Shown: positions 5,352-64,000 of the stretch, one piece after another
Numbering within the stretch: position 1 is the stretch's first letter
How the letters are laid out: each line of letters opens with the position of its first letter
Assembly (NCBI GenBank): GCA_022841905.1
Contig: JALHQO010000014.1
Span: forward strand, 1 to 64,000
Source of the DNA: Hyphomonadaceae bacterium
GTDB lineage: Bacteria > Pseudomonadota > Alphaproteobacteria > Caulobacterales > Aquidulcibacteraceae
Direction of reading: 5' to 3'
DNA: 64,000 nucleotides
Position numbers and translations under genes: made by a program
Notes under the pieces: model-generated
What the model was told of the DNA's origin: nothing
The model's database searches: none
What the model saw: the letters and a program-made list of their open reading frames with translations, nothing else

Positions 5352-5443
5352 GGGAAACCTGAGCGCTCGCCACGTTGCGCGGCGGCGCGATGCGCTCTAG
5401 GTACGGGCGCGCGCGACGCGCTTCAACCCGGACCCGGCAAAGA

Positions 5444-5674: not shown

Positions 5675-5755
5675 CAAAGAAATCGACGAACGGGTCCGAT
5701 TTCGGCGTGTAACGCGCGGGCCCCGTTCCTAGATCGCGTGCAGAGGAGACTTCCA

Positions 5756-6559: not shown

Positions 6560-6596
6560 GGGCTGACGACTCTCCGCCAATTGCCTAGATAGGCGC

Positions 6597-9476
<2,880 letters not shown>

Positions 9477-9515
9477 TGGTTTGCCGCAGGCGAAATCCAC
9501 GCGCATAAAGTGCGC

Positions 9516-9971: not shown

Positions 9972-10142
9972 CGCCTTAGTTTCATCATCATTCGCCGATG
10001 TGGCGCTGCGGCCGGCGCGGCGCGCGTTCAATTTCCAGAGAGCGTGTGCGCAACGGGCCAGAACCTGTTTCCATCTCGGCCATTGACGGCTAAGACTGCC
10101 GACGCCAGTTCATTACGGCAAAGTCAGGAACCTCACGCGCCC

Positions 10143-10841
10143 ATGGCTACAATCGCCCTTGTCGACGACGACGAGAACATCCTCGCTTCCTTGAAACTTC
10201 TGTTCGAGGGCGAAGGCTACACCGTGCGCACCTATACGGACGGCGCCGCAGCGCTTGCCGCGCTCTCGGAGACGCCGCCGGACATCGCTGTGCTTGATAT
10301 CAAGATGCCGCGCATGGACGGCGTCGAAGTGCTGCGCCGCTTGCGCCAGGGTTCGAACCTGCCGGTCATCTTCCTCACCTCGAAGGACGATGAGATGGAT
10401 GAGGTTGTCGGCTTCAATGTCGGCGCCGATGATTACATCAAGAAGCCGTTCTCCCAGCGCCTGCTGAGCGAGCGCGTGAAGGCGCTGCTGCGGCGCACGC
10501 GCGCCGGCACGCCTGGCGCCGAGCCGGTGGGCGACAAAAAGCCGATTGTGCGCGGCGAGTTGACGCTCGATCCCAACCGCCACGCCTGCACCTGGAAAGG
10601 TGAGGCGGTTCGGCTCACAGTGACGGAATTCCTCATCCTCCAGGCGCTGGCGCAGCGCCCGGGTTATGTAAAAAGCCGCGACCAATTGATGGACGCGGCG
10701 TATGACGATCAGGTCTATGTCGACGACAGAACCATCGACTCGCACATCAAGCGGCTCCGCAAGAAGTTCCGCGACATCGACGGCGACTTCGACGCGATCG
10801 AAACCCTCTATGGCGTCGGCTATCGGTACAACGAAGCCTGA
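10143..10841 (+). CDS. chvI: Two-component response regulator ChvI
   Basis: A 232-residue OmpR-family regulator. The receiver domain (1-120) has the acidic pocket VDDDE and the phosphoacceptor Asp52 in [10 protein letters not shown], Thr in [11 protein letters not shown], and Lys in IKKPFS. The winged-helix effector domain (about 135-230) ends [16 protein letters not shown]. The sequence and the partner kinase overlapping it match the ChvI/ChvG pair of alphaproteobacteria, which controls envelope, acid and osmotic stress responses. The ATG at 10143 starts exactly at the receiver domain. Confidence 0.93.
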
Positions 10842-49933: not shown

Positions 49934-50422
49934 TTGGCCAAGACCGATTTGGGCGACAAGCAAGTCTGCCCGAACTGCGGGGCGAAGTTCTACGACCTCC
50001 GACGGCGCCCGGCGGTCTGCCCGAAATGCACCACAAGCTTTGACCCGGCCGAGGAAGGCGTTCGCGCCCGACGTGGCCGCGCCCGCGTCGCCGCCAACGA
50101 TCCGTCTTACGAGGATGATGACGAGGTCGAGAATAAGAAGAAGGCCAAGAGCGGCGACGACGAGGACGATGAGGACGAAGAAATCGAAGAAACGGTCGCC
50201 ATCGACGCCGAAGCCGATGCCGAGCCGCTCGTCGTCGATGACGACGAAGAAGAAAAGCCGGCCGGCGACGAAATCCCCGAGGGCTTCTCCGAAGGTGAGG
50301 AAGATCTCGGCGAAGACGCCGCCGACGACGACACTGTGCCGCTGATCGACGACGAGGAAGAGTTCCCCGAAGACGAGATCGGCGAAATCGGCGGTGGCGA
50401 TGACGACGACAGCGGCCGCTAA
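49934..50422 (+). CDS. TIGR02300/FYDLN-acid family zinc-ribbon protein
   Basis: A 162-residue protein. Residues 1-40 hold a zinc ribbon with two CPxC pairs (CPNC and CPKC) around the family tag KFYDLRRRP, and the rest is a long Asp/Glu-rich tail broken by one Lys-rich patch. This is the alphaproteobacterial FYDLN-acid family of unknown function; the tail suggests binding to basic partners. The start is TTG at 49934 behind AGGAGAG. It is immediately upstream of tRNA-Ala. Confidence 0.88.
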   Translation: MAKTDLGDKQVCPNCGAKFYDLRRRPAVCPKCTTSFDPAEEGVRARRGRARVAANDPSYEDDDEVENKKKAKSGDDEDDEDEEIEETVAIDAEADAEPLVVDDDEEEKPAGDEIPEGFSEGEEDLGEDAADDDTVPLIDDEEEFPEDEIGEIGGGDDDDSGR

Positions 50423-50503
50423 GCGCCGCGCTTGAATGCCGGAAGTGCGGAGCGTAGGTTCCGCGCGTTCCAAAATCGCCCGGTCCCAACCGGGCGAAGA
50501 AAT

Positions 50504-50579
50504 GGGCCCTTAGCTCAGCTGGGAGAGCGCCTGCATGGCATGCAGGAGGTCAGCGGTTCGATCCCGCTAGGGTCCACCA
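50504..50579 (+). tRNA. tRNA-Ala (anticodon GGC)
   Basis: A 76-nt cloverleaf. Acceptor GGGCCCT pairs with AGGGTCC and includes the G3-U70 pair that is the alanine identity element. The D-loop is AGCTCAGCTGGGAGAGC, the anticodon stem CCTGC/GCAGG with loop ATGGCAT (anticodon GGC), and the T-arm GGTTCGATC. CCA is encoded at 50577-50579. Foreign-looking DNA begins directly after it. Confidence 0.97.
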
Positions 50580-50895
50580 CCTAGTACAGCGTTGTAAACG
50601 CACGACTTTTTTCGCCGCGTAACGCTCGGATAGTACGGCACTAGTTTTCTTTGTAGCGAACAAGAGACGCGATGATGCGGTCGCAACGCGCCGAATCTGG
50701 CCTGTGTCTCTGTGGGCAAATTTCGAGTTAGCTGTTTCGTCGCCGCGCTTGCGCAGAGGAGCGCGCGCTCGACTCTTCGGTAGAGCGAAGAGTAGCGGGT
50801 GCGCCGATTTGTGGTCGCCTGGCAACTTGTCAAAAGTGAACTGAACACAACGCCCCTGGCTCAGTGCGAAACGACCGGCGTCGCCGGTGGTGCTC
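50580..50895. other. Non-coding junction between tRNA-Ala and the recombinase gene
   Basis: A 316-base stretch with no believable gene. It contains a T6 run shortly after the tRNA (about 50607), which may end tRNA transcription, and a small hairpin with 8-bp arms ACTCTTCG/CGAAGAGT at 50772-50793. If the island is real, this is the expected place for the left attachment site. Confidence 0.5.
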
Positions 50896-52488
50896 TCAAT
50901 TGAACTGGGCAAAGCGCGCGCGTTGTGCCGCCCAGGTTTCGGGTATCGGTTGGGCGATCAGAGCGGACAAGGTCAGGCGCGGTGGCTGACGGCCGTCAAG
51001 AATCATCTCCACCAGATCCGGTGCGAGATAGGCCAGGGGCAACAGCTTCGCGGTATGCAGGATGCAGTGCTTTTCCGTGCGCGCTAGCTCACGAATTGAC
51101 CTCGGCTGTCCGGCGTCAAGCTTGGCGACCCACGCTTTTGCCCTAGTGATGGCGCGCACCAGTGCATCATCAACGCGCGGCTTTGCTGCGCCGTGAACGC
51201 CTATCATCGTGGTCGCGTTGCGGGGGCGCGCCATTGAGATTGATGCTCTGATGCGGATCATCTGATCGAGGCGCTCTGTCGTTGTGGACGAGGGTAGCGC
51301 GAACAGCGACGCTTCATCTAGAGCATCGGCTTTAAGCTCGAGCGTCAGATGTCGTGCGCCGACTTCAACGCGCTGGAGGGCATCGACCACGCGATCTTGC
51401 TCCGCCTCGTTTGCCTTCCAATCCGATGTGAGCAGGGGCGATGTCGCAGCAATGACCGCCTCATCCATGGCGCGCATCGCAACGCGCCGTAGCGATCCTG
51501 CCTCCTTGCTTCGTCCTCGGAGTGCCGGTGCTGAAACATAATATCGAAAGCGACGCGATCCTTTGCGCGCGCTTGTTGGCGCCATGGCGTGACCGGCATC
51601 ATCAAACAGCTTGCTCTTGAGAAAACCGATGGTGGTCGTCGGGCTCGCGCGCTCGCCATTATCCGCGAAGATTGCTTGCGCCTCATCCCATGTCGTCGCG
51701 CCGATGATCGCCTCGTGCTGACCGGGATAGACCTTACCCTTGTGCCGGATCATCCCGCGATAGAGCGGGTTTGTGAGTATGGTGTAGAGACCGCCGCGGG
51801 TGATCGGATGTCCGCCGTAGGCCATGCCGGCAGCGCTTGTCCATTGCTTGGCCATCACGCCAAGTCGCTCTAGCTCAGGCTCCAGCGTGATCACCGATCG
51901 CAATGCGATGAAACGCCCGAAGATGAGGCGAACGTGCTCTGCTTCAGTTTCGTTGATGGTGAGCGTTCGTCCGTTCGGCTCGTAGCCAAGCGGCGGTTTG
52001 CCGCCCATCCACATGCCCTTGGCTTTAGATGCTGCGAACTTGTCCCGGATGCGTTCGCCGGTGACCTCTCGTTCAAACTGCGCAAACGATAGAAGGACGT
52101 TTAGCGTCAGCCGACCCATGCTTGTGGTGGTGTTGAACGCCTGCGTGACCGAAACAAACGAGGCGCCGGCTTTATCGAGAACCTCCATGATCTTGGCGAA
52201 GTCCCCCAGTGAGCGCGTCAGACGGTCCACTTTGTAGACGACCACCACATCAATCCGCCGCGCTTCGATGTCCGCCAGCAGACGTTGAAACGCCGGTCGC
52301 TCTATCGAACCGCCAGAATAGCCGCCGTCCTCATAGGGTTTGCCGAACAGCGTCCAGCCTTCGCCCACCTGTGACTTGATGTAAGCGCCGCAAGCCTCTG
52401 ACTGTGCATCGAGTGAGTTGAAGTCCTGGCCCAGACCTTCTTCGGTGGAGGTGCGGGTGTAGATGGCGCAGCGGCGGCGTCCGCTCAT
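50896..52488 (-). CDS. Serine recombinase (large, resolvase-type)
   Basis: A 530-residue site-specific recombinase. The N-terminal catalytic domain has AIYTRTSTEE with the nucleophile Ser14 (Y-x-R-x-S), SLDAQ, YEDGGYSGG, RPAFQRLLADIE, VVYKVDRLTRSL and FEREVTGERIRDK. The middle is the recombinase zinc-ribbon/DNA-binding region (GGLYTILTNPLYRGMIRHKGK), and the C-terminal 200 residues are helical and variable. These enzymes insert or excise islands by concerted four-strand cleavage. Its start overlaps DUF2924 by 4 bases. Confidence 0.92.
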   Translation of the reverse strand: MSGRRRCAIYTRTSTEEGLGQDFNSLDAQSEACGAYIKSQVGEGWTLFGKPYEDGGYSGGSIERPAFQRLLADIEARRIDVVVVYKVDRLTRSLGDFAKIMEVLDKAGASFVSVTQAFNTTTSMGRLTLNVLLSFAQFEREVTGERIRDKFAASKAKGMWMGGKPPLGYEPNGRTLTINETEAEHVRLIFGRFIALRSVITLEPELERLGVMAKQWTSAAGMAYGGHPITRGGLYTILTNPLYRGMIRHKGKVYPGQHEAIIGATTWDEAQAIFADNGERASPTTTIGFLKSKLFDDAGHAMAPTSARKGSRRFRYYVSAPALRGRSKEAGSLRRVAMRAMDEAVIAATSPLLTSDWKANEAEQDRVVDALQRVEVGARHLTLELKADALDEASLFALPSSTTTERLDQMIRIRASISMARPRNATTMIGVHGAAKPRVDDALVRAITRAKAWVAKLDAGQPRSIRELARTEKHCILHTAKLLPLAYLAPDLVEMILDGRQPPRLTLSALIAQPIPETWAAQRARFAQFN

Positions 52489-52901
52489 GACGATTTCTCC
52501 CGCGTGAAATCATCAAGCTTGAAGAAGCGCGGGCCGTTCCAGTGCACGCCAGTGATGGCGCTCGCGACCGCGCTCAGCGATGCATAGCGGCGTCCGTTCC
52601 AGAGGAAGCCGTCGTCTGTCACTGTGACGGCGAAGGGCACGCCATTCCATTCGCGGACTAGCACTGTGCCCGGAGACAAACGCGGCAGCGCCGGGCCGGG
52701 TGCAACGAAGGCGGTGTCCAGCCGACGACCAGCTTTGCGGACGGCGACAGCGGACGTCGCCGCTTCTTGCTGGTAAATAATCGCCCGCAGCAACAAGTCA
52801 CGTGAACTGTGCTGCGGGAGGTCATCCTTGCAGTACTGGACCCAATGTTGGCGCAGCTGCTCAAGCGACATCTGGCGAAGCGTGAGAGTTTCAACAATCA
52901 T
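52485..52901 (-). CDS. DUF2924 domain protein (recombinase-associated)
   Basis: A 138-residue protein. The second half carries the DUF2924 pattern: PGTVLVREWNG, VTVTDDGFLWNGRRYASLSAVA and ITGVHWNGPRFF. Members are nearly always encoded next to serine recombinases in alphaproteobacteria and their phages. The N-terminal half is helical (QLRQHWVQYC). A role as an accessory or directionality factor is inference from context only. It overlaps the recombinase and the upstream small gene by 4 bases each. Confidence 0.88.
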   Translation of the reverse strand: MIVETLTLRQMSLEQLRQHWVQYCKDDLPQHSSRDLLLRAIIYQQEAATSAVAVRKAGRRLDTAFVAPGPALPRLSPGTVLVREWNGVPFAVTVTDDGFLWNGRRYASLSAVASAITGVHWNGPRFFKLDDFTREKSS

Positions 52902-53104
52902 GGCGTCGTCGCCAACCGTGCGAGGATGGTCGCCGATCGCGCGATCTCAGCAAGGTCGCTGCTGTATTGCGCGATTGTGTTAGCGGCGAAGGCGGCGGGC
53001 GCGCGTTGACCGAGCACGATTTCTTCATTGGCCGCTTCAGCCAATTCCACCATGACCTGCCACAGCGCTTCGAGCGCAACGCCTGCGGAAGCCGGCGCGA
53101 TCAT
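52898..53104 (-). CDS. Small protein of unknown function in the recombinase operon
   Basis: A 68-residue protein, mostly helical and Ala-rich, with one acidic stretch (VELAEAANEEIVLG). It overlaps DUF2924 downstream and DUF3489 upstream by 4 bases (ATGA) on both sides, which supports it as a real gene of this operon. No domain was recognised. Confidence 0.6.
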   Translation of the reverse strand: MIAPASAGVALEALWQVMVELAEAANEEIVLGQRAPAAFAANTIAQYSSDLAEIARSATILARLATTP

Positions 53105-53406
53105 TTCTTGGCGTCCAGTTTGTAGACGCGTTCATCACCGACTTTGGTTGACGTTATGGACAGGCCTCGACCTTTTTTGAGCGCGCCAGCAATGGCGCCG
53201 CGCACCGAGTGCTGCTGCCAACCCGTCAAAGACATGAGCGTGGTGATTGATGCGCCTTTGGCCGGTCGCATTGCAGCGACGATCACATCTAGCTTTGACC
53301 CTGCGACGTTTCCTGCGCCGCGCTGCATTGCTTGGCGGCTGGCGCCCTTGGCCGACTTCTTGGCCGAAGCTGATTTGCTTGGACCAGATTTGGTTTTCGG
53401 TGACAT
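53101..53406 (-). CDS. DUF3489 domain protein
   Basis: A 101-residue protein. A Lys/Ser/Ala-rich N-terminal tail (about 1-38) is followed by a winged-helix-like DUF3489 domain: KLDVIVAAMRPAKGASITTLM, then the diagnostic TGWQQHSVRGAIAGALKKG, then VYKLDA. The domain usually accompanies serine recombinases and is assumed to bind DNA. It is first in the operon, with GGAG about 9 bases before the ATG at 53406. A start 51 bases upstream is less likely. Confidence 0.88.
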   Translation of the reverse strand: MSPKTKSGPSKSASAKKSAKGASRQAMQRGAGNVAGSKLDVIVAAMRPAKGASITTLMSLTGWQQHSVRGAIAGALKKGRGLSITSTKVGDERVYKLDAKK

Positions 53407-53921
53407 TGTGCTTGCTCCGTGGCCGACGTTGCGCCGGCACGAGAGCAAGCCCCGCAAAATCGGGGCGAAAGGGGCGTTGAAATGAGGGGCCTCTGAGAGA
53501 GGTCTAATGTACGTTCCGCTGGTGTTCCTTGCAGTTCATGCTGCACCACACACGCTCCATTTCGCCCTGTAGTCCAGTCGAATTCTGCTCAGCAGGGGAT
53601 GGCCGTTGCGGGGCAGAAGCCGACGTCGCGGACTTTGTGATTTTGCGCACAAGCGGACATCGCGAGCTTCACGGGCAGCTATGGCGGCTCTTACAGGGAG
53701 GGACGTGCCGCGAGTTCGCATGAAGTCGAACGGGAACATCGACCGAGCGTACTTGTGGCCTGGATCGGCGACCGCGCATGCTGAATGGGCGCTCTATCGG
53801 CGCGCGAATAATTGTCGGGCGTCTTGGATACTCTCGAAGAGGATCATCCTCCGCTGCCACCCCCGAGCGGCCCCCGGCGGCCGACGGGCCGAGTTCGCTC
53901 GACTCGCGATATGATGCGCGA
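53407..53921. other. Divergent intergenic region between the recombinase operon and the cargo genes
   Basis: A 515-base stretch that should hold the promoters for both sides. It contains a 6-bp hairpin GCCCCG/CGGGGC (53449-53466) and one small minus-strand open frame with a CxxxC end (53504-53650, listed separately). Plus-strand frames here have Arg-rich, low-complexity translations and are not called. Confidence 0.5.
53504..53650 (-). CDS. Possible 48-residue Cys-containing protein
   Basis: From a GTG at 53650 to a TAG at 53504-53506. The C-terminus GEMERVWCSMNCKEHQRNVH has the look of a short zinc finger (C-x3-C with two following His residues) and is in the same direction as the DUF3489 operon 98 bases downstream. 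The N-terminal half is Ser/Pro/Ala-rich and unremarkable, so this may instead be the remnant of a longer gene. No ribosome-binding site is evident. Confidence 0.25.
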   Translation of the reverse strand: MRKITKSATSASAPQRPSPAEQNSTGLQGEMERVWCSMNCKEHQRNVH

Positions 53922-54647
53922 ATGACCAAGCAGACTAAGCCGCCTAACGGTTGGGGCGTCGACGCGCTGACCACCCATTTGCAGATGGCCCACGAAAATC
54001 GGTTCGCGACCTTCGCGAATAAGAAGGTTGAGAGCCAGCTTTTGATCGCGCTGGACGGCTGCTTCGTGAAGATCGTTCCAGCGCTGATCAACCCTAATCA
54101 CCCGGTCGCCGCGATGCTACTCATACGCACGCACGCGCTGTTCCGCGGCGCTTGCGAGCACGCAATGGCGGGCCAGCTCCCCGAGACGTTCAACATCATC
54201 CGGGCCTGCCTGGAATGCGCGGGCTACTCACTCCACATTGCGAAAAATCCCGGTGCGGATCGGGTCTTTCTTCAGCGCCACGATGACGCAGCGGCGCTCC
54301 AAACTTCGAAGAACATGTTCAAGGTGTCGGAGGTGAGGAAGACGATCACCGCCGCCAACGCAAAGGCGGGCGAGGTCTTCGACCTGCTTTACCAACTGGC
54401 GATCGACCAGGGCGGGCACCCGAACGAGCAAGCCATCACCGGCAACATGCGGATGATCGAGGGCGACGGGAAAATCGAGATCCAGCAGGTTTATCTGCAC
54501 GGCGACGGCCTTCAACTCGACTTTGCCCTGAAGTCCACGGCGCGCGCGGGCGTTTGCACCCTTGAAATCCTGCGTGAGGTTTTTCCGGAGCGATTTCGCC
54601 TCCTCGGCATCACCGACGAGGTTCTGAAATTACGGCGGGGCCTCTAG
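53922..54647 (+). CDS. Helical protein of unknown function next to the KAP-like NTPase (DUF5677-like appearance)
   Basis: A 241-residue, mostly alpha-helical protein without signal or membrane spans. The stretch LIRTHALFRGACEHAMAGQ, then NIIRACLECAGYSLHIA, resembles the helical core of DUF5677-type proteins. It contains Arg75-x4-His80, which fits the loose RX4-6H pattern of HEPN nucleases, though that alone is weak evidence. The ATG at 53922 is preferred to a longer frame, which is Arg/Ser-rich. It is 17 bases upstream of the NTPase gene, so the two almost certainly form an operon. Confidence 0.6.
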   Translation: MTKQTKPPNGWGVDALTTHLQMAHENRFATFANKKVESQLLIALDGCFVKIVPALINPNHPVAAMLLIRTHALFRGACEHAMAGQLPETFNIIRACLECAGYSLHIAKNPGADRVFLQRHDDAAALQTSKNMFKVSEVRKTITAANAKAGEVFDLLYQLAIDQGGHPNEQAITGNMRMIEGDGKIEIQQVYLHGDGLQLDFALKSTARAGVCTLEILREVFPERFRLLGITDEVLKLRRGL

Positions 54648-54664
54648 GATCTGGAGAAAAAGTG

Positions 54665-56353
54665 ATGGCGACGGAACACGTCGAACAGCAGATCAGGCGA
54701 TTTCTCGAAACCGCGGAGCCGGAGACCCTCTGCGTGCGCGGCGCGTGGGGCGTCGGCAAGACCTTCATCTGGAACTACGTTCTCCGCAAAGCGAGAGACG
54801 AACAAAAGATCAAGCTGGATAGCTATTCCTACGTCTCCCTGTTCGGATTGAACAGCATCGAGGAACTTAAGTACGCGATCTTCGAGAACCGGATTCCATT
54901 GGCCGAGATAGGCAAAAAAGCGACCTTTGAGTCGCTCGAGCGCAACGCGCGAACTTATTCGAGGGCGATTTCGGCTGCGCTGTCAAAACTCCCTATTGTC
55001 GGCGGGTATTTTGAAGTTGCCGCCCCGCTATTGTTGCTGACGATCGCTCAACAGATTGTCTGTATCGATGACTTGGAGCGGAAGGGTTCGGACTTAGAGG
55101 TCCGAGAGGTCTTTGGTCTTGTCTCGTTTCTCAAGGAGCAACGCGACTGCAAGGTTGTCCTACTCTCAAATACCAGCGAGCTGCGGGACCAAGACAAAGA
55201 GCAATTCGACGCTCACCTTGAAAAGGTAGTCGACGAGGCTCTGACATTCGAGCCGACGCCGCAGTATTGCGCCGAGATCGCGCTTACGGACGATCAGACC
55301 GGGTTGGCCAAAAAGTGTGTGGCGCTCGGCATCTCAAATATTCGCATTATAAAACGCATTCAGCGCTTGGTTGATCACGTGCAGGTGCCGCTGCGTTCCT
55401 TTCGCAAGGAAGTCCTTGATCAGGCGGTCCACACGCTGGCAATCCTCGGGTGGATCAAGTTCTCCAAGGAAACGGCTCCGCCGCTGCAAATGCTGCATAA
55501 TCGGCTCGGTCGTCGGATGATGGAGTCAGTGGGGCAAAAGAAGAAAGACGAAGACCCCAAAGAAGCGGCGTGGAACGCGCTGATCGACAACTATGGCTTC
55601 GCTGACATTGATGACTTTGATGCCGTCCTGTTGGACGGTGTAGAACACGGGTACTTCGATGAAGAGCGGTTGAAGGAGCAAGCGGAAAAACTCAGCCGCA
55701 GCTTTGAAGATCAAGAAGGGCAAAACGCTCAGCGCGCTGCTTGGCGCATGTTTCACGACTCGTTCGACGATAACGGCGCGGACGTTGCCTCGAATTTGTT
55801 TGCCGCGCTCAAACAACACATCTCGCACGTCAGCATCACCAATCTGAATGGTGCGATGACCGTGCTGAAGGAATTAGGGCAACGAGAAAAGGCAACAGAG
55901 CTGCTCGCTGCGTGGGTCCAAAGCCGACAGGGCAATCCGCGGAACTTCGATCTAGATCGGGGACCTTTCAGAGGGGAAGTTAACGACCCCGAACTCGTCG
56001 TGGCATTTGCAGCGGCGGCGGCCGAGCAAACCGAAACGAGAGAACCAATAGAAATCCTGTTGAAGCTCGCTGAAGATGGGGGATCTGAGGAGGACTACGC
56101 CATACTGGACCGCATCAGCGTCGAGGACATCCTCGCACAATTGAAGTCGCGCAAGGGCGATGATTTGCGAGCCTTAATAAACGCATGCATCGGCTCGGAC
56201 AGGATTATCAACGCACGCGATGTTGAACGGCAGGTTTCGGCTCGCGCCAAAGAAGCGCTCGCCCGCATCGGTGCGACGAGCGACGTGAATGCGCTGCGAG
56301 TTAGTCGATTTGGCGTGGGCCCAAAAGCGCAAGGTGGAAGAGAGGAACAGTGA
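54665..56353 (+). CDS. KAP-like P-loop NTPase (candidate defence ATPase)
   Basis: A 562-residue protein. Walker A GAWGVGKT is at residues 26-33, and after a long insert containing a hydrophobic patch (about 111-130) Walker B IVCIDDLERK has Asp135/Asp136. This is close to the IDDLDR motif of KAP NTPases such as PifA. A sensor strand VVLLSNTSEL follows. The C-terminal 350 residues are helical, with repeats suited to sensing or scaffolding. Codon use is less GC-rich than the flanks. The ATG at 54665 follows GGAG by 8 bases. Function is inferred; no nuclease motif is visible. Confidence 0.7.
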   Translation: MATEHVEQQIRRFLETAEPETLCVRGAWGVGKTFIWNYVLRKARDEQKIKLDSYSYVSLFGLNSIEELKYAIFENRIPLAEIGKKATFESLERNARTYSRAISAALSKLPIVGGYFEVAAPLLLLTIAQQIVCIDDLERKGSDLEVREVFGLVSFLKEQRDCKVVLLSNTSELRDQDKEQFDAHLEKVVDEALTFEPTPQYCAEIALTDDQTGLAKKCVALGISNIRIIKRIQRLVDHVQVPLRSFRKEVLDQAVHTLAILGWIKFSKETAPPLQMLHNRLGRRMMESVGQKKKDEDPKEAAWNALIDNYGFADIDDFDAVLLDGVEHGYFDEERLKEQAEKLSRSFEDQEGQNAQRAAWRMFHDSFDDNGADVASNLFAALKQHISHVSITNLNGAMTVLKELGQREKATELLAAWVQSRQGNPRNFDLDRGPFRGEVNDPELVVAFAAAAAEQTETREPIEILLKLAEDGGSEEDYAILDRISVEDILAQLKSRKGDDLRALINACIGSDRIINARDVERQVSARAKEALARIGATSDVNALRVSRFGVGPKAQGGREEQ

Positions 56354-56374
56354 TTGCCGTTTTGGGGCAACGTA

Positions 56375-56965
56375 TCACTGAAGTCCGATCAGGTTGACCA
56401 ACAGCAATGTCGCCACGACTGCGGCCACCGTCGCGACCTGCACTAGCAGCACTATCCTCATGTCGAAGAGTATTTTGTAGTCCGCGCTGAGGGGCATGGC
56501 GCGGAGGCGATCCACAAACAGTACTTTGCCCGTGCGGCCGGTGTGTGCGTAGAAATACGGTCTATTGAAGAAGTCGATCCACGCCAGCGGCCATACGATA
56601 AACGCGGAAGCCACGAGTAGGACGCCTTGCCATAAGTTGTAACGATGAAAGCCAGCGTGCTCTCTCGACGCACGCATGTTGGTGGCGATCTGGCTTGCGT
56701 GAGTTCGCGCGGTGGCACCCCCGATCGCCATCCAAATGAGGGCGGCGTCTTTTTGCCAATTGGTAAGCACGAGATGAAACGGCAACACAATTAGATCGAT
56801 GATCGGGTGGAATAGCGCCCGATACAACGCTGCAACTTGAACCATGAGGTCGGACAGCTCTATGCCCGACGCCCGCGTCACGAAGTTGAAGATCGCAACC
56901 GAAGACAGGAGCATGGTGATCTGTGTCCACCAGCTCTTGTACGCTGCCTTGACGCTTGCCCACAT
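56375..56965 (-). CDS. Multi-pass membrane protein, convergent to the NTPase gene
   Basis: A 196-residue protein with four or five hydrophobic segments (about 15-30, 45-66, 75-86, 112-132 and 168-192). It has no recognisable domain. The stop lies only 21 bases from the end of the NTPase gene. It could be an effector or anchor for the neighbouring pair, but opposite orientation weakens a direct operon link. The translated sequence is normal in composition and the frame is intact. Confidence 0.55.
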   Translation of the reverse strand: MWASVKAAYKSWWTQITMLLSSVAIFNFVTRASGIELSDLMVQVAALYRALFHPIIDLIVLPFHLVLTNWQKDAALIWMAIGGATARTHASQIATNMRASREHAGFHRYNLWQGVLLVASAFIVWPLAWIDFFNRPYFYAHTGRTGKVLFVDRLRAMPLSADYKILFDMRIVLLVQVATVAAVVATLLLVNLIGLQ

Positions 56966-57409
56966 GCGGCGCTCCCCACCGTCAAGTGTAGCACTTCAGC
57001 TCAGCCCCTCAACGACGAGTACTGACGCTGAAAGTCCGTTGAGCGGCACGCAGGCTGGAAAGGCCGTTATTGGGATGAAGTGCTCGTGCCGATGAGCAGA
57101 TAACTACCGATTATCGACTCATCGATCCGTTGCGACCGAACCGCAGCGATCAGCGGGGGAGTCGAACCGTTCAGCGCATAAGTGATGATCGTGGCGCGGC
57201 GGTGAGCGGGCCAAGCCACGGACCCGATAAGCGCGCCAAAGCCGACGCTCATTGCGATACGGCCGACCGGCAATCGGTGACCCCAAATCAGGCGGTGACC
57301 TCCGTCGAGAGAAGCCCCGACCATTTTCTTTCAAACGTTCGACTAAGCGGAGGCTAGACAAGCGCCGTGCGCGCGCGCGTTATCTCACCAACGATAGGGA
57401 GCGCATACC
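56966..57409. other. Intergenic region at the right edge of the putative island
   Basis: A 444-base stretch without a confident gene. A minus-strand frame at 57067-57324 (85 residues, one hydrophobic patch GFGALIGSVAW) is possible but has no ribosome-binding site or relatives that I recognise. The right attachment site of the island would be expected here or slightly downstream. The last 20 bases carry AGGGAG before the next gene. Confidence 0.4.
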
Positions 57410-58324
57410 ATGGATGCTTCACAGCTTATGTTCAAAGAAGGCTTGATGCGCGGTGAGCGCATCCTGGTCACTGGCGGTGGCTCTGGCCTCGGCAAGGAGA
57501 TGACCGAGGCGTTCGTGAAATTAGGCGCCGATGTCTACATCTGCGGGCGCAGGGGCGATGTGCTGAAGGAAACCGCCGACGAGATCATGGGTATGCACGG
57601 CGGCAATGTCTGGCCGATCCCGTGCGACATTCGTAACGCCGAAGCGATTCACGAAATGGTGGATCAGATTTGGGCGACAGGCGGCGCACTCACCGGGCTC
57701 ATGAACAACGCCGCTGGCAATTTCATCTCACGCACCGAAGACCTGACGCCGAAGGGTTTCGACGCGATCTCCAACATCGTCTTTCGCGGCTCGTTCTACG
57801 TGACGCACGACATTGGCAAGCGCTGGATCGCCGAAGGCAAGAAAGGCAACGTTTGCTCTATCATCGTCACCTGGGTTTGGGATGGCGGCCCGTTCACGGT
57901 GCCTTCGGCCATGTCAAAGGCCGGCATCGACGTCATGACCAAATCGCTCGCCATCGAGTGGGGTCGCTATGGCATTCGCCTCAATACAATTGCCCCAGGA
58001 CCGTTCCCGACTAAGGGCGCTTGGGAGCGGCTCTCGCCAGGCCGTGACGCGGCGACAGCAAGCGCGAGCGTCGGTGTCGACAACCCATCTATCCACGGCC
58101 GCATTGGGAAGATGCACGAACTCTGCAATCTCGCAGTTCTGTTGATGGCGCCCGGCGCTGAGTACATAAACGGTCAGACCATCGCGATTGATGGCGGCCA
58201 GCATCTGTTAAACGAAGGCGGATTTTATGGTCTCTTGTCGCAATGGGGCGACGCGGAATGGGAAGCCGCCCGCGAGGCGATCAAGGGCGCCAACGAAAAA
58301 GATCGGGCCAAGCGCACCACATAA
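57410..58324 (+). CDS. 2,4-dienoyl-CoA-reductase-like SDR
   Basis: A 304-residue short-chain dehydrogenase. The cofactor loop TGGGSGLG is at residues 21-28, with NNAAGNFI near 99-106. The usual catalytic Tyr-x3-Lys is Ser166-x3-Lys170 (VPSAMSKAGID), which together with LNTIAPGPFPTKGAWERL is the pattern of mitochondrial-type 2,4-dienoyl-CoA reductases. These reduce dienoyl-CoA intermediates of unsaturated fatty acids with NADPH. The long C-terminal tail is as in that family. It is single, followed by 250 non-coding bases. Confidence 0.85.
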   Translation: MDASQLMFKEGLMRGERILVTGGGSGLGKEMTEAFVKLGADVYICGRRGDVLKETADEIMGMHGGNVWPIPCDIRNAEAIHEMVDQIWATGGALTGLMNNAAGNFISRTEDLTPKGFDAISNIVFRGSFYVTHDIGKRWIAEGKKGNVCSIIVTWVWDGGPFTVPSAMSKAGIDVMTKSLAIEWGRYGIRLNTIAPGPFPTKGAWERLSPGRDAATASASVGVDNPSIHGRIGKMHELCNLAVLLMAPGAEYINGQTIAIDGGQHLLNEGGFYGLLSQWGDAEWEAAREAIKGANEKDRAKRTT

Positions 58325-58577
58325 AAGTACGGCGCGCCTTGGCTCACGCAACATGACCATCGGCTGGATTTGAACGGCCAAGCCCGTCGTAAAATGTGTC
58401 GATCCGGCGCGTGCTGGTCCGTAGCGGACGCAATGCGAGCGCAAGTCACGAGACGAACCAGCCCTTGGCGACGGCAGCCGTCCGCCAAACCAGGGCTCCG
58501 GCCGGGAAGGCGAACTGTTCAGCGAAGGATCGATGTCGAGGGCGTTGCCGGCTGAGGGAAAGTCTTTCAGTGGCAAA

Positions 58578-59504
58578 TCACGATCGCCTTAGCCCGGCTA
58601 CAGCGCGCTTAAGCGCGTCGACAGAACTAGCACGCGCCTTGATCGCGATGGTCGCGGTCTGTGCATGCATGAACCCGTGGACACCACCGGCGTATACATC
58701 GAACTCGATTTCAACGCCGGCTAAATCGAGCGCGCGCGCGAAGCGCGCATTTTCGCCGAAGAATAGATCGCAATCACCAACGGCAAGATAGGTGGGGGGC
58801 ATTCCTGAGAGGTCACGCGCGCGACCAGGCGCGGCGTAGATTGGAACGGATTCGGCGCTGATGGCCTCGCCTAGATAGCAACGCCAAGCGAACTGATTGC
58901 TTGGCCCGCTCCAGACCGGCACATTGTCTGCTCCAACTCCTGCAGCAGTGCGGTCATCAAGCATTGGATAGATCAGGTGGAGAAAAGCCGGCCGGTCTTT
59001 ACCGGTGTCGCGAAGTTTGAGCGCCAGCCCCGCTGCTAGCCCGCCGCCTGCGCTTTCACCGATGAAGCCAATGCGGGAGCCGTCAATGCGCCATCGTGGG
59101 GCGTCGGCGAGGAGAAAGGCAAAGGCCGCAGCACAATCGTCGAGAGGAGCGGGATATGTAGCCTCCGGCGCCAAGCGATAATCCACCGACGCGATGATGC
59201 ATTGAGCTTCCGCAGCGAGCGCTCGCATCGACGGCGCCTCCGATAGAGCGCTGCCGCCAACGAATCCACCTCCGTGGATATGGAGCGCACATGGCGCTGC
59301 TGTGAGAAGGCCAACGGGGCGATGCATCAACAGGCGCACGCCCGGAGAAGTCGGCAGTGTCACCGATTCAGAGATGACTTGCAGGTCATCCGGTTGTGCG
59401 ACCACGCCCACCGTCATTTTGCGAAAGTCGCTGAGGGTTTCGGCGCTCAGATGGAAATGCTTGAAGCGCTCCACAAAATCGCAAAGCTCTGGGTCAATAT
59501 TCAC
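58578..59504 (-). CDS. Alpha/beta hydrolase, hormone-sensitive-lipase family
   Basis: A 308-residue esterase. The oxyanion-hole HGGGFVGGS, the nucleophile elbow GESAGGGLA, the acid in VGDCDLFFGEN and the His in GGVHGFMHA give the full triad of the HSL (family IV) group. It should hydrolyse small acyl esters or lactones. The preferred start is GTG 59504, which overlaps the stop of the transketolase-like gene as GTGA; a TTG 21 bases upstream is possible. It is the last gene of the minus-strand catabolic operon. Confidence 0.88.
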   Translation of the reverse strand: MNIDPELCDFVERFKHFHLSAETLSDFRKMTVGVVAQPDDLQVISESVTLPTSPGVRLLMHRPVGLLTAAPCALHIHGGGFVGGSALSEAPSMRALAAEAQCIIASVDYRLAPEATYPAPLDDCAAAFAFLLADAPRWRIDGSRIGFIGESAGGGLAAGLALKLRDTGKDRPAFLHLIYPMLDDRTAAGVGADNVPVWSGPSNQFAWRCYLGEAISAESVPIYAAPGRARDLSGMPPTYLAVGDCDLFFGENARFARALDLAGVEIEFDVYAGGVHGFMHAQTATIAIKARASSVDALKRAVAGLRRS

Positions 59505-61873
59505 GAGCGCGGCGTCCGGCGCCAACGAGCAGCTTGGTGCGTCGCAGCGATTACGGAGGCCGCGTCAATTCCATGCTTTGCATAGAGGTCGGGCAGATCG
59601 CCTGACTCTCCAAAGCGCGTGACGCCCAACGCGTGCACCGGATGTCGGGCCACTGCGCCTATCCACGAAAGCGTGAGAGGATGACCGTCAATCAAGGTGA
59701 CTAGTCCGGCGTCAGCAGGCACGAGCGACAATAAGGACTCTATATGCGCCGCTCGCCTCATGCCTTTAGCGCGATCGGCACAGGCCGCGTGCCAATCATT
59801 GTAGAGCCTGTCAGGCGAGGTGATCGCAAGCAGGCCAAGCCTTGGATAGTCCTCGATGAGGGTTGCAACTGCCTCCATCGCTTCTGGCGCAATAGCGCCG
59901 CAATAAGCGATGGCGACCGGGCTTGAACCTTCGGGCTTGCGCAACCAATAAGCGCCTTCGATCAGGTCCGCTTCCTGCTCTTCACTCAGCGCGCGCGGCA
60001 ACTGCGGAATAGTGCGCGTAGAGAGTCGCAAATAAACGGAGCCACCTTGTTTGGCCTGCATGTGGCCAAAGCCCCAGCGCATGAGCGTTGAAAGCTCATC
60101 GACATAAGCAGGCTCGAAATATGCCAGGCCCGGCTGACCAATGCCGATCAGCGGGCTGTTGACGGATTGGTGGGCGCCGCCCTCCGGCGCAAGGGTGATG
60201 CCCGAAGGTGTGGCTACCAGCATAAAGCGGGCGTCCTGATAGCAGCCGTAGTTCAACGCATCGAGGCCGCGGGCAATGAAGGGATCGTAAAGCGTGCCAA
60301 TCGGCAAAAGGCGTTCGCCCCAAAGATCGCCAGCGAGGCCCAAAGCCGCCAACAATAGAAACAGATTGTTCTCAGCGATCCCGAGCTCAATGTGTTGGCC
60401 CGTCGAACCACCGCCCCATTTTTGCGTCGATGGGATCTTCGCGTCGCGAAAAACGTCCGGCGAAGGGTTGCGCCGAAAGAGGCCGCATAGATTTACAAAC
60501 CCACCAAGATTGGTGGAGACGGTGACGTCCGGCGAGGTGGTGACAAGTCGCGCAGCGAAGTCAGGGTCGGCTTTGACAAGGTCGACGAGAATGCGCCCGA
60601 AGCCCGCTTGCGTGGACATTTCTTCGGCGCGAGGTCGCGGAAAAGTCTGACGGTCTGGGATCTCGATGAGGGACGCGACAGTTGGGGCGGTCTTTGTCGC
60701 GCGCGCAAAGGGCGTCGATGAAAGAAAGGTGCGAAGCGCTGCGGCGTCTTGTGGGGCTAGTCCCGCAAAAGGGGCCCATTCATGCCCACCTGCGATCCCC
60801 ATACTCTCACGCAAAGCTTCGATTTGGGTCGGGGTCATTAGGCCGGCGTGATTGTCTTTGTGACCCGCGAACGGAAGCCCGTGGCCCTTGATCGTGTAGG
60901 CGGTGAACAGCGTAGGCGTGTCATCGTCCGCTGCCGCAAAAGCCTCAAGCAGCGTGTCCACGCAGTGGCCGCCGAGGCCGGTCATCAAAGCGTCGAGGCT
61001 GTCATCGTCGTATGATTCGATGAGGGCTTGGCCACGCGGGCTAAGATCACGGGAGAGCCGTCCACGCCACGCACTCGCGCCTTGATAGGTGAGTGCTGCG
61101 TAATCTGCGTTGGCGCACTGATCGATCCAGTCTCGCAATTCGTTGCCGCCGGCGCGCGCGAACGCTTCACGTTGCCGCTTGCCATATTTGAGCGTGACGA
61201 CACGCCATCCCGCAGTGTCAAAGATGTCCTCGAAACGGTCGAACATGCGATCTGCGGTAGTCGCATCTAAGCTTTGGCGATTGTAGTCGACGATCCACCA
61301 CATGTTGCGAATGTTGTGCTTGTACGCCTCAATGAGGGCTTCGTAGATGTTGCCTTCGTCGAGTTCAGCGTCGCCAAGAAGAGCGATCATGCGGCCTTCG
61401 CGCGCGGCATCAAGCCAACCATGGGCTTTGAGATAATCCTGTGTCAGCGAAGCGAAAGCTGTGATGGCGACACCCAGACCCACAGAGCCGGTGGAAAAAT
61501 CCACGTTGATCTTGTCTTTGGTGCGAGAAGGGTACGATTGGGCGCCGCCAAGACTGCGGAAGCTCTGTAATTGCTCAAGGCTCTGGCGTCCGAGCATGTA
61601 TTCGATCGCGTGCAACACCGGAGAAGCGTGAGGCTTGACCGCGACTCGGTCGGCTTCACGCAAGGCGGCGAAATAGAGCGTCGCCATGATGGTGGTCATT
61701 GAGGCGCACGAGGCTTGGTGCCCACCGACCTTTAGCCCATCGCGGCTCTCCCGCAGATGATTGGCGTTGTGGATGGTCCACGCCGAAAGCCATCGGAGCC
61801 GCGCGTCGAGCAGCTCGAGCATGCGCACTTGTTCGGTGTTGGTGATGACATCAGGCGCAGTCAGAGTATTCAT
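59501..61873 (-). CDS. Transketolase-like / homodimeric 2-oxoacid dehydrogenase E1 (AceE type)
   Basis: A 790-residue thiamine-diphosphate enzyme. GGHQASCASMTTIMATLYF begins the pyrophosphate region, the ThDP motif is GDAELDEGN (167-175) with VDYNRQSLD, and the second domain has IELGIAENNLFLLLAALG and PEGGAHQSV. The order of domains and the AceE-like ends point to the homodimeric E1 group, although E. coli AceE is about 100 residues longer. No E2 or E3 gene is nearby. Placed between an acyl-CoA synthetase and an esterase, it may act on a 2-oxoacid or ketose from a catabolic route. Confidence 0.85.
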   Translation of the reverse strand: MNTLTAPDVITNTEQVRMLELLDARLRWLSAWTIHNANHLRESRDGLKVGGHQASCASMTTIMATLYFAALREADRVAVKPHASPVLHAIEYMLGRQSLEQLQSFRSLGGAQSYPSRTKDKINVDFSTGSVGLGVAITAFASLTQDYLKAHGWLDAAREGRMIALLGDAELDEGNIYEALIEAYKHNIRNMWWIVDYNRQSLDATTADRMFDRFEDIFDTAGWRVVTLKYGKRQREAFARAGGNELRDWIDQCANADYAALTYQGASAWRGRLSRDLSPRGQALIESYDDDSLDALMTGLGGHCVDTLLEAFAAADDDTPTLFTAYTIKGHGLPFAGHKDNHAGLMTPTQIEALRESMGIAGGHEWAPFAGLAPQDAAALRTFLSSTPFARATKTAPTVASLIEIPDRQTFPRPRAEEMSTQAGFGRILVDLVKADPDFAARLVTTSPDVTVSTNLGGFVNLCGLFRRNPSPDVFRDAKIPSTQKWGGGSTGQHIELGIAENNLFLLLAALGLAGDLWGERLLPIGTLYDPFIARGLDALNYGCYQDARFMLVATPSGITLAPEGGAHQSVNSPLIGIGQPGLAYFEPAYVDELSTLMRWGFGHMQAKQGGSVYLRLSTRTIPQLPRALSEEQEADLIEGAYWLRKPEGSSPVAIAYCGAIAPEAMEAVATLIEDYPRLGLLAITSPDRLYNDWHAACADRAKGMRRAAHIESLLSLVPADAGLVTLIDGHPLTLSWIGAVARHPVHALGVTRFGESGDLPDLYAKHGIDAASVIAATHQAARWRRTPRS

Positions 61874-61891
61874 TTGGGCTGCTTTTAGACT

Positions 61892-63427
61892 TCAGATCTG
61901 ACGATCGTGTCCGATCCAATAGGGCTCGCGCAGGCGGCGTTTAAAGATCTTGCCTGAATCTTCGCGTGGTAGAGCGACCTCGATCTTCACGACGCGCGGC
62001 AGTTTAAAATCTGCAAGTCGTGGCTGAAGAAACGCGCGCACGCTTTGAAGGTCTGGATCGGCGCCCGGACGGGGCTCGACGACGGCACAAACCTGTTCGC
62101 CGAATTCTGGGTGGGGTATGCCAAAGACCGCGCAATCTGCGACTTCGGGCATTGTCAGGAGTTCAGCCTCTATCTCCGCAGGATAAATGTTCACTCCGCC
62201 GCTAATGATGATGTCGCGGGCACGGTCGCGCAGAAACAGAAAGCCGTCCTCGTCGAGATAGCCGATGTCGCCAAGCGATACGAAGCCATCCCTTTCGATC
62301 GCAGCGCGATCTTTCTCGCGCTGATGATAGGTAAAGTCGGGAAAGGCTGAGTTGCGGATGTAGACCTCGCCGACTTCCCCAGGCGCCAATATCGCCCCGT
62401 CGGGCGAGATAATGCGGAGAGCGCAACCGTCCATTGCTTTGCCGACGGTGCCGGGTTTTGCGAGAGCTTCTTCAGATGTGCACGCGACGACGCCGCCGGT
62501 TTCGGTGCCCCCATAATATTCTCGTATGACCGGGCCCCACCATTCGATCATGGCGCGCTTTACGTTTGGTGGGCAGGGCGCAGCAGCGTGGGCGACAAAT
62601 TCAAGCGAAGATAGGTCATAGCCGTTGCGCGTTGCCTCCGGCAGCGCCAGAAGTCTTGAGAACATTGTTGGCACCATGTGCACATGCGTGATGGCGTGCG
62701 TCGCAATGAGCGCCAGAAGCGCCTCCGGTTCGAATTTTGGCTGAAGGACCACCAGCCCGCCTGCGCGCGCTGCCCAGAGGCCGTAAAGATTCGGAGCGGC
62801 GTGGTACATCGGCCCAGTGATGACCGTGCGCACGGGGCGGGTTAGCGATAGTCCCAGCGCCGTTTCTACGAGGCCCGCCATCGACGCTGCCATCGCCGCA
62901 TCAGCCGGTGCGCGGCGAACCCCTTTGGGTTTTCCGGTGGTGCCAGACGTATAGATGATGGCGTTGCGACTGGGCGTAACTGGCCCGGTCCAGGGGGCGC
63001 TTTTGGCGATGAGTGCTTCCCAACGCAGCGATGCGCTTGGCGGGGGCGTTGGGGGCGCCGCCAAATCGTATGCCCGCACGATCTCGCTCGGAGTGTCTAC
63101 GACAATCAGCTTGATGCCGTCTGGCAATATCGCCTTTACCTCGCCGAGGAGGTCTTGGTGGACAATCAGTGCTTTGGCGGCGCTATCTTGCAGGATGTAG
63201 CCGATCTCATTGGCTTTGAAGTGCCAGTTGATCGGCACCGCATAGGCGCCCAGACGGTCCGCAGCGAAACTTGCTTCGAAGAATGCGAAGTCATTGCGCA
63301 AGAGCGTTGCGACGCAATCGCCTTCACCAACGCCTAGGTTGGCCAAGGCAGTGGCGCCCCGTGCGGCTCTTTCATCGAGGTGTTGCTTATCGAGCCGCCG
63401 ATCGCCGCTTAAAATCGCCCCGCTCAT
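61892..63427 (-). CDS. AMP-forming acyl-CoA synthetase
   Basis: A 511-residue ANL-family ligase. The P-loop YTSGTTGKPKGV is at residues 159-170, the adenine site YYGGTETGG, the hinge GYLDEDGFLFLRDRARDIIISGG, and the C-terminal catalytic Lys in REDSGKIFKRRLR. It activates a carboxylic acid to acyl-CoA. The start follows a strong GGAGGAG. It lies 18 bases upstream of the transketolase-like gene and 68 bases after the racemase-family gene. The first residues lack the usual 20-residue lead, so it is slightly short. Confidence 0.92.
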   Translation of the reverse strand: MSGAILSGDRRLDKQHLDERAARGATALANLGVGEGDCVATLLRNDFAFFEASFAADRLGAYAVPINWHFKANEIGYILQDSAAKALIVHQDLLGEVKAILPDGIKLIVVDTPSEIVRAYDLAAPPTPPPSASLRWEALIAKSAPWTGPVTPSRNAIIYTSGTTGKPKGVRRAPADAAMAASMAGLVETALGLSLTRPVRTVITGPMYHAAPNLYGLWAARAGGLVVLQPKFEPEALLALIATHAITHVHMVPTMFSRLLALPEATRNGYDLSSLEFVAHAAAPCPPNVKRAMIEWWGPVIREYYGGTETGGVVACTSEEALAKPGTVGKAMDGCALRIISPDGAILAPGEVGEVYIRNSAFPDFTYHQREKDRAAIERDGFVSLGDIGYLDEDGFLFLRDRARDIIISGGVNIYPAEIEAELLTMPEVADCAVFGIPHPEFGEQVCAVVEPRPGADPDLQSVRAFLQPRLADFKLPRVVKIEVALPREDSGKIFKRRLREPYWIGHDRQI

Positions 63428-63495
63428 AAATCCGCTCCTCCGTGTCTGAACGTCAAGCTCTCATGCCTTGAACGATCGGTCAATTAATGCGGCGG

Positions 63496-64000
63496 TCAGA
63501 TTGCGATATCCCAATCGCGCCAAACGCTGCCGTCATCGGCGCCAACGCGCGGTGGTGGGCCCTGTATTGCGCCAGGTGTCTTGGAAAAGCGTGGCGCAGG
63601 TGCGGGTTGGATATGGCCGTTTTGGGTGACGAAGGTCTGGCGCGCCTGATTGTGCGGATGAGCATGGGCTTCGCCCATGGCAAGCACAGGGGAGATGCAA
63701 ACGTCTAAGTGCTGGAGGCGCGACAACCAAGATGCCAGGTCTAGACTGAGAAAGATCGACTCCAGGCGCGCGCGCATTGCGGGCCAGTCGCTTTCGTCGT
63801 GCTGGCGTAGCGCAGCCTCGGCTTCGACGCCAAGCGCGTCCAACAGGCGCGCGTAGAAATGGTGTTCGTAGGCGCCGACGGCGATGTAACCACCGCATGC
63901 GCAGCGATAGGTGTTGTAGAAGGGCGCCGCGCCATCCAGGTCGTTGGCTTCGCGAGCGTCGTTCCACGCGCTCATAATGCGTTTGCCCATGATCATGTTC
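63496..64000 (-). CDS. CaiB/BaiF CoA-transferase / alpha-methylacyl-CoA racemase family, 3' part
   Basis: The gene runs off the window end; about 168 C-terminal residues are visible. GAAPFYNTYRCACGGYIAVGAYEHHFYARLLDAL is recognisable by its parts NTYRC and GYIAVGA, typical of alpha-methylacyl-CoA racemases, and the later CISPVLAMGEAHAHPHNQAR is the family hinge. The catalytic Asp region lies outside the window. It either epimerises 2-methyl-branched acyl-CoA or transfers CoA. It is upstream of the synthetase in the same operon. Confidence 0.85.
   Translation of the reverse strand, partial: NMIMGKRIMSAWNDAREANDLDGAAPFYNTYRCACGGYIAVGAYEHHFYARLLDALGVEAEAALRQHDESDWPAMRARLESIFLSLDLASWLSRLQHLDVCISPVLAMGEAHAHPHNQARQTFVTQNGHIQPAPAPRFSKTPGAIQGPPPRVGADDGSVWRDWDIAI

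What the first reader, a model, noticed from the sequence alone, without database searches (positions are those of the whole stretch)
53922..56965. Candidate undescribed defence cassette: helical protein plus KAP-like NTPase plus membrane protein
Seen: a 241-residue helical protein and a 562-residue NTPase with GAWGVGKT and IDDLER motifs form a 17-base-spaced operon, followed convergently by a multi-pass membrane protein. All three sit in a recombinase island behind tRNA-Ala with less GC-rich codons. Known: KAP NTPases include PifA, which blocks phage T7. Inference: this is an NTPase-centred abortive-infection or exclusion system. I cannot name the pairing from memory.
Basis: partly seen in the sequence, partly recalled or inferred. 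Interest (0 to 1): 0.72.

Follow-up and report, generated by a model that had tools for sequence, protein, structure and literature searches.

The report
Mobile KAP NTPase, unrelated helical neighbour
Three accessory genes brought in on a mobile element beside a tRNA gene were read as one new defence system; one of them belongs to an already listed but, as far as found, untested family of likely anti-phage NTPases, and its neighbours appear to be independent cargo rather than partners.

Summary
In detail: a 241-aa helical protein (53922-54647), a 562-aa NTPase 17 bases downstream (54665-56353) and a convergent hydrophobic protein (56375-56965) lie behind tRNA-Ala and a serine recombinase, at a real integration site. 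The cassette reading fails: among 168 other loci holding the NTPase family (113 clusters), none has a relative of the helical protein in the DNA held, and none of 33 loci of the helical family has the NTPase. The third protein's family is also found apart. The NTPase alone is a plausible defence gene. It matches PADLOC's candidate PDC-S49 (1.5e-26), and 15 of 114 clusters sit at the P2-prophage locus between gpA and portal gene gpQ, a published hotspot of exclusion genes. Nearest neighbours matched 50 PADLOC models, distal ones 3. It is not PifA, and Tmn's two membrane helices are not evident. The helical protein belongs to a separate prophage family (phrog_36906) with a weakly HEPN-like predicted fold and no conserved HEPN RNase motif. 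Verdict: new member of a listed candidate family, not a new two- or three-gene system.

The parts
50504..50579 (+). tRNA-Ala (GGC), integration site; alignments to four congeners stop at 50579 (three) or 50581 (one, in which parts of the recombinase module match again further on)
50896..52488 (-). large serine recombinase
   Evidence: Pfam Resolvase 2.6e-38, Recombinase 8.2e-9
52485..52901 (-). DUF2924 protein of the recombinase module
   Evidence: Pfam PF11149 1e-31
53101..53403 (-). DUF3489 protein of the recombinase module
   Evidence: Pfam PF11994 1.6e-21
53922..54647 (+). 241-aa helical protein, phrog_36906 family, distantly DUF5677-like; independent cargo gene
54665..56353 (+). 562-aa KAP-type P-loop NTPase, PADLOC PDC-S49 / phrog_4740 family; probable single-gene exclusion protein
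56375..56965 (-). 196-aa hydrophobic, probably membrane protein; own family, not linked to the NTPase elsewhere

Best explanation
The region is one end of an integrative element that entered tRNA-Ala through a serine recombinase and carries unrelated accessory genes side by side. The NTPase is a self-contained member of the PDC-S49/phrog_4740 family of KAP-type P-loop NTPases. It most likely works as a one-protein phage-exclusion factor: a nucleotide is bound by the N-terminal P-loop domain (about 1-200), the long all-helical C-terminal part (about 200-550) senses a phage product or assembles the protein, and hydrolysis switches it to a state that stops the infected cell or the phage. Shown (by prediction and comparison): fold class, invariant Walker A/B, mobility, repeated capture at the P2 exclusion locus. 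Inferred: the defence activity. Guessed: sensor, trigger and effect. The helical protein is separate cargo from another prophage-borne family, itself plausibly a defence or toxin gene, that happens to lie just upstream here; the convergent membrane protein is a third independent gene.
For: PADLOC PDC-S49 1.5e-26 for P0002, and all 71 members of alignment A3, P0002 included, match it. Among 172 NTPase loci in 114 clusters at 70% identity, 25 loci in 15 clusters have the P2-type portal gene convergent downstream within 3 kb (18 of 25 within 67 bases) and 13 of those clusters also have gpA upstream; both marker genes were checked against annotated phages. This is the locus described in PMC9122126, section 10 (read), where old-tin and 3 of 8 further cloned systems blocked phages; passages of PMC9519451 place four of its systems there too. 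PADLOC families at 1e-10: 50 for 80 nearest ORFs, 3 for 81 ORFs over 5 kb away in the same set of loci. Nearest ORFs include Mrr-like nucleases, XhoI and an N6 methylase. Independence of the three genes. Predicted structure pLDDT 92 with an AAA-type N-terminal domain. A congener (G127, L238) has a related recombinase module at the same tRNA with genes that look by eye like type I restriction and a DUF262-type nuclease (no family search).
Against: No member of this family has been shown to block a phage in anything I read. PADLOC's PDC models are themselves candidates (recalled), so that match is not independent proof. The nearest ORFs also match many ordinary families, e.g. a NADH dehydrogenase subunit and a tRNA methyltransferase, and one of six opened plasmid records shows a plain metabolic setting. 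Morons can have other roles: PMC9122126 section 10 reports partition and toxin genes at the same hotspot, and 5 of the 8 newly cloned systems there showed no activity. The P2 position was seen in 15 of 114 clusters; the two named hosts (Pantoea L014, Serratia L072) are gammaproteobacteria, not the window's lineage. Only 25 of the 50 neighbour families were displayed and several models hit one protein, so 50 versus 3 overstates the number of proteins; ORFs were called by a crude greedy rule. Separation of the genes rests on flanks of 1.5 to about 10 kb, less at contig ends, and several of the 168 loci are the same place fetched twice (hence the cluster counts).
Confidence: 0.62

Rival explanations
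1. A lineage-specific two-gene system: the helical HEPN-like protein is the toxin or effector and the NTPase its sensor or regulator, joined recently.
For: 17-base spacing and same strand; both families occur in viral contigs; weak HEPN-type fold matches for P0001, e.g. 2hsb TMt 0.67, 1ufb 0.50, AbiV 9bj7 0.40.
Against: 0 of 168 other NTPase loci hold a P0001 relative and 0 of 33 other P0001-family loci hold the NTPase. A 55%-identical P0001 relative in G067 lies between a LepA-like gene and MazF-like genes with no NTPase (names by eye). The HEPN matches have E-values of 0.54 or more.
Confidence: 0.08
2. The NTPase is an element-maintenance or other accessory NTPase of mobile elements (partition, packaging, replication), not a defence protein.
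For: Foldseek's best hits are ORC/Cdc6, RFC and RuvB AAA+ ATPases; some relatives sit beside CopG-like or spanin-like phage genes (by eye); not every gene at the P2 hotspot is a defence gene.
Against: Patchy distribution (6 of 200 genomes of the order, its own included, two of the other five full-length), repeated capture at one exclusion locus, restriction-type neighbours. Query TM-scores of the Foldseek rows shown are 0.16-0.28, i.e. little beyond the shared ATPase core.
Confidence: 0.2
3. P0001 is itself a defence gene (a divergent DUF5677/HEPN-like abortive infection protein) and the main one here. Its first half does not exclude the best explanation.
For: In the 4 of 12 plasmid records opened, P0001 relatives sit near an abortive infection gene (L015), Shedu (L016), HNH and CHAT genes (L017), a dsDNA nuclease and a kinase (L018); 3 of 19 clusters lie within 6 kb of a P2-type portal gene, one at 39 bases.
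Against: Below Pfam's DUF5677 cut-off (13.9 of 27.1 bits); no PADLOC match for P0001 at E 1, and only weak ones among 20 family members (best 0.0021); the HEPN RNase motif R-x4-6-H is present at one place in at most 10 of 20 members, and P0001 lacks it there.
Confidence: 0.25

Closest known systems
PADLOC candidate PDC-S49 (and PHROG phrog_4740)
   Same: Similarity over most of the length, P-loop domain with long helical C-terminus, single gene in viral contigs, genomes and plasmids
   Different: About 60 residues shorter than the PADLOC models (562 against 619-629); at most 41% identical to the relatives listed
KAP NTPases (Pfam PF07693)
   Same: Walker A region scores above Pfam's cut-off (25.6 of 20 bits; residues 17-58)
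   Different: Membrane segments inside the NTPase domain, named in the title of Aravind et al. 2004 (seen as a reference only), are not evident in this family: 3 of 71 members, P0002 among them, have any 19-residue window of 1.6 or more. PifA has none by the same measure, so this does not set the family apart from PifA
PifA of plasmid F
   Same: P-loop NTPase; 34-residue Walker A match
   Different: hhalign finds 28 columns only; PADLOC's PifA model does not match P0002 but matches PifA itself
Tmn
   Same: Described as a KAP-family NTPase that blocks T2, P1, phiVi, phiX (PMC11846954 passages)
   Different: Tmn is described with two transmembrane domains; P0002 shows one borderline hydrophobic stretch. 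No Tmn sequence was compared
DUF5677 / HEPN-fold proteins (for P0001)
   Same: Marginal DUF5677 similarity in 8 of 20 members (best 0.0086); weak HEPN fold matches
   Different: Own conserved set R94, E98, Y102, D162, H166, N168 in 20 of 20 and W116 in 19 of 20

Membership tests
PDC-S49 (PADLOC) | Significant match to the PADLOC models along most of the protein | tested here: met
   1.5e-26, residues 4-366 of 562; all 71 members of A3, P0002 included. PADLOC's own thresholds were not available
KAP NTPase (Pfam PF07693) | Score above Pfam gathering cut-off | tested here: met
   25.6 bits, cut-off 20; only residues 17-58 align
KAP NTPase | Walker A and Walker B intact | tested here: met
   K32, D135, D136 in 71 of 71
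KAP NTPase | Transmembrane helices inserted in the NTPase domain | tested here: inconclusive
   3 of 71 reach hydropathy 1.6, P0002 among them (1.84 at 116-134, running into the Walker B strand); PifA, used as yardstick, does not reach it either (1.27)
PifA | Homology to PifA beyond the Walker A stretch | tested here: not met
Tmn | Two transmembrane domains | tested here: not met
   One borderline stretch only; whether PADLOC 2.0.0 holds a Tmn model was not checked
QatA (QatABCD) | QatA model match | tested here: not met
   No QatA hit for P0002 at E 1; partner genes not sought
HEPN RNase / DUF5677 (P0001) | Pfam cut-off and conserved R-x4-6-H | tested here: not met
   13.9 of 27.1 bits; motif at one place in at most 10 of 20, absent there in P0001
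Conserved multi-gene defence cassette | Same genes recur together in unrelated genomes | tested here: not met
   0 of 168 and 0 of 33 other loci
Anti-phage system | Reduces phage plating | not testable with these tools
   needs bench work

The most novel reading that the evidence does not exclude
PDC-S49-type NTPases form a distinct, apparently soluble branch of KAP-like immune ATPases that act as one-protein sensors and killers, spread across many phyla by prophages and islands; in this genome one has recruited a HEPN-like protein as a dedicated effector, the first step to a two-gene system.
Probability: 0.06. Interest if true: 0.65.

Novelty: new member of a known kind. Interest (0 to 1): 0.34.

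Why it matters
It removes a false cassette from the candidate list, and gives a candidate family (PDC-S49) evidence that does not depend on its being listed: repeated capture by many P2-type prophages at the very site where proven exclusion genes sit. That makes a small, cheap bench test worthwhile. A second unnamed family, phrog_36906, is also found at or near that site in 3 of 19 clusters.

Tried and rejected
Three-gene or two-gene cassette: rejected on co-occurrence. Membership of PifA: rejected. Membrane anchoring as a mark that separates this family from PifA: dropped, since PifA shows no membrane window by the same measure. Canonical HEPN RNase for P0001: motif not conserved. Sequence match of either family to solved structures: P0001 family 0 hits, NTPase family only DNA ligase 4 at E 0.16-0.17. 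Viral fold library for P0001: no hit at E 0.001. Promoter scan: 0 found where shuffles give 1.4; terminator-like sites 5 against 4.7 by chance, so uninformative. Direct and inverted repeat search for attachment sites within 50400-58000: short, mostly imperfect pairs, none at the tRNA end. Search of G581 with 19 kb of C9 beyond the right junction: no match, which the tool itself calls uninformative. Isolated phages: 8 of 50,697 records match P0002, one over most of its length; none match P0001 at E 0.001. Papers: PDC-S49 in 0 papers; DUF5677 with phage in one unrelated paper (listing only). Dropped before counts: a weak P0001-like hit in G342 (L103/L184, E 1.8e-4 at first pass, lost in the second profile), which has no NTPase either; short copies of places fetched again with longer flanks.
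Full report
WHAT IS THERE. The NTPase matches Pfam KAP_NTPase at 25.6 bits (cut-off 20) over residues 17-58 only, while P0001 and P0003 reach no Pfam cut-off. NCBIfam gives nothing above a cut-off for these three.

THE ISLAND. Behind tRNA-Ala come a serine recombinase and the small genes DUF2924 and DUF3489. All 30 genomes of the genus searched, the window's own included, have a match to the tRNA region, and in 24 of the other 29 the best match ends at query base 646, the last base of the tRNA (two of the 24 match over the tRNA only). In four congeners taken out, the alignment from the left stops at 50579 (L235, L236, L237) or 50581 (L238). The DNA that follows the tRNA in the closest congener (G581) is found in the window's genome on another contig, C9:39104-45944, at 93%, so the right end of the insertion lies there. 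Unless the assembly is wrong or rearranged, the inserted DNA then runs from 50580 to the contig end at 76320 and beyond; whether it is one element or several is not known. In G127 (L238) the same tRNA carries a related recombinase module (67% over 50908-51066, 73% over 51980-52673, 74% over 53119-53226) followed by other genes that look by eye like a type I methylase, a specificity subunit and a DUF262 protein (no family search was run on them). Beyond 57410 the window's island carries metabolic genes (by eye), so it is not a pure defence island.

THE NTPASE FAMILY. Relatives: 80 kept of 231 confirmed places in the genome collection, 75 loci in viral contigs, 136 plasmid records, 8 phage records, and 6 of 200 genomes of the order, its own included (two of the other five are full-length matches). 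All 71 members of alignment A3, P0002 included, match PADLOC PDC-S49; K32, D135, D136, E138, R139, N225 and R227 are invariant in it. AlphaFold2 gives mean pLDDT 92 with an N-terminal ATPase core and a helical remainder; Foldseek recovers AAA-type ATPases with query TM-scores of 0.16-0.28 in the 50 rows shown, so the C-terminal part has no evident counterpart there.

POSITION IN PROPHAGES. In 172 loci with the NTPase (114 clusters at 70% identity, the window's own included) a P2-type portal gene lies convergent downstream within 3 kb in 25 loci of 15 clusters, 18 of the 25 within 67 bases, and 13 of the 15 clusters also have gpA upstream on the same strand. The portal is annotated as such in Pantoea plasmid pPant1; the two marker proteins match 'replication endonuclease' and 'portal protein' of annotated phages. 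PMC9122126 (section 10 read) calls this locus a hotspot with 1,650 gene arrangements in 18,150 occurrences and reports phage defence for old-tin and for 3 of 8 further systems cloned from it; it also reports non-defence genes there. Its main text holds no mention of KAP NTPases among the passages found ('kap' hits were names; supplementary tables were not read).

NEIGHBOURS. From 57 dereplicated genome loci, 101 nearest ORFs and 81 distal ORFs (over 5 kb away) were called; 81 of each were taken and 80 and 81 scanned (one nearest ORF was a piece of a broken NTPase gene and was dropped). At E 1e-10 the nearest set matched 50 PADLOC families, the distal set 3. Only 25 of the 50 are shown and many type I methylase models hit a single protein, so the number of proteins is smaller than the number of families; restriction enzymes, a type I methylase, Old, AriA and mad2 models are among those shown. 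In Pfam the nearest set also matches ordinary metabolic families. Six of 136 plasmid records were opened: neighbours include DNA-repair genes, a helicase, ThiF/Mov34, DUF4238 and VapC genes, a TIR protein, plain metabolic genes and contact-inhibition genes with a phage portal. Of the recurring neighbour families listed (the first 40), by eye most are phage genes or frames antisense to them, the rest integrases and common enzymes. Of 114 clusters, 27 have a same-strand ORF of 80 aa or more within 60 bases upstream and 24 downstream; those that resemble each other are two groups of prophage genes upstream and, downstream, frames antisense to the portal.

P0001. Found in 2 of 200 genomes of the order, 5 of 385 of the class (its own counted in both), 12 plasmid records and, with a wider alignment, 25 viral loci. 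P0001 and the two relatives tried match phrog_36906. In the 4 plasmid records opened its relatives lie near Shedu, an abortive-infection gene, HNH and CHAT genes, a dsDNA nuclease and a kinase. Of 19 clusters, 3 (L190-192, L194, L195-196) lie within 6 kb of a P2-type portal gene, one of them 39 bases away; in L194 the arrangement is different (portal upstream, same strand). The model has pLDDT 92.5; Foldseek has no hit at E below 0.4, but 2hsb (titled HEPN) and 1ufb (HEPN as recalled), at probability 0.77 and 0.75, are the best by probability of the 50 rows shown. The HEPN motif is not conserved.

PAIRING. Outside the window's genome, 168 NTPase loci (113 clusters; 156 loci with at least 1 kb upstream held; some are one place fetched twice) contain no P0001-family gene, and 33 P0001-family loci (19 clusters) contain no NTPase. 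P0003's family is in 6 of 299 genomes of the order, its own included, and on one Roseibium plasmid near a DNA methyltransferase gene, in no case with the other two in the stretches held. Limits: flanks run from 1.5 to about 10 kb, and first-look filters may miss distant relatives.

MECHANISM. Most likely a one-protein exclusion factor driven by nucleotide hydrolysis. The ATPase core is predicted and its catalytic residues are invariant; phage exclusion is inferred from position and company; what it senses and what it does to the cell are guesses by analogy with other immune NTPases. PifA and Tmn are the nearest characterised KAP proteins I know of; this family is not alignable with PifA beyond Walker A and shows no pair of membrane helices as described for Tmn. 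By the same hydropathy measure PifA shows none either, so lack of membrane helices does not set the family apart from PifA.

NOVELTY. The family was already on a public list of candidates, so this is a new member of a known kind; what the scan adds is the P2-hotspot evidence and the separation of the three genes. Searches for print, all in one open-access library: PDC-S49, KAP NTPase or phage defence, KAP P-loop, KAP family with prophage, Tmn. Papers seen beyond listings: section 10 and passages of PMC9122126; passages of PMC9519451, PMC13273231, PMC11846954 and PMC10853773.

Noticed in passing
L238 (G127), reverse complement 5989-11391: Same tRNA-Ala site in a congener carries a related recombinase/DUF3489 module followed by genes that read like type I restriction and a DUF262 nuclease (by eye): possibly one element family with exchangeable defence cargo.
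   Followed up: partly
L195:1623-2450, L196:3455-4282, L192:3424-4230: phrog_36906 (P0001 family) genes 39 to 691 bases from a P2-type portal gene, i.e. a second unnamed family at the exclusion hotspot.
   Followed up: partly
L148, L149, L156, L158 around 4000-6000: NTPase family members placed directly after an Rz/spanin-like lysis gene (named by eye) in four prophage contigs: a different moron site for the same family.
   Followed up: no
G000:C9:45944 onward (L249, L250): Right junction of the tRNA-Ala insertion lies on another contig; the sequence at the junction has CCACCA-like bases as at the tRNA 3' end.
   Followed up: partly
L262 (Roseibium plasmid) 4947-5657: P0003 relative on a 23-kb plasmid with a DNA methyltransferase, AAA ATPase and recombinases.
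   Followed up: no
window 57410-64000: SDR, esterase-like, transketolase-like and CoA-ligase-like genes follow on the same contig (named by eye); the SDR has close relatives (77-90%) in 2 of 29 other genus members.
   Followed up: no
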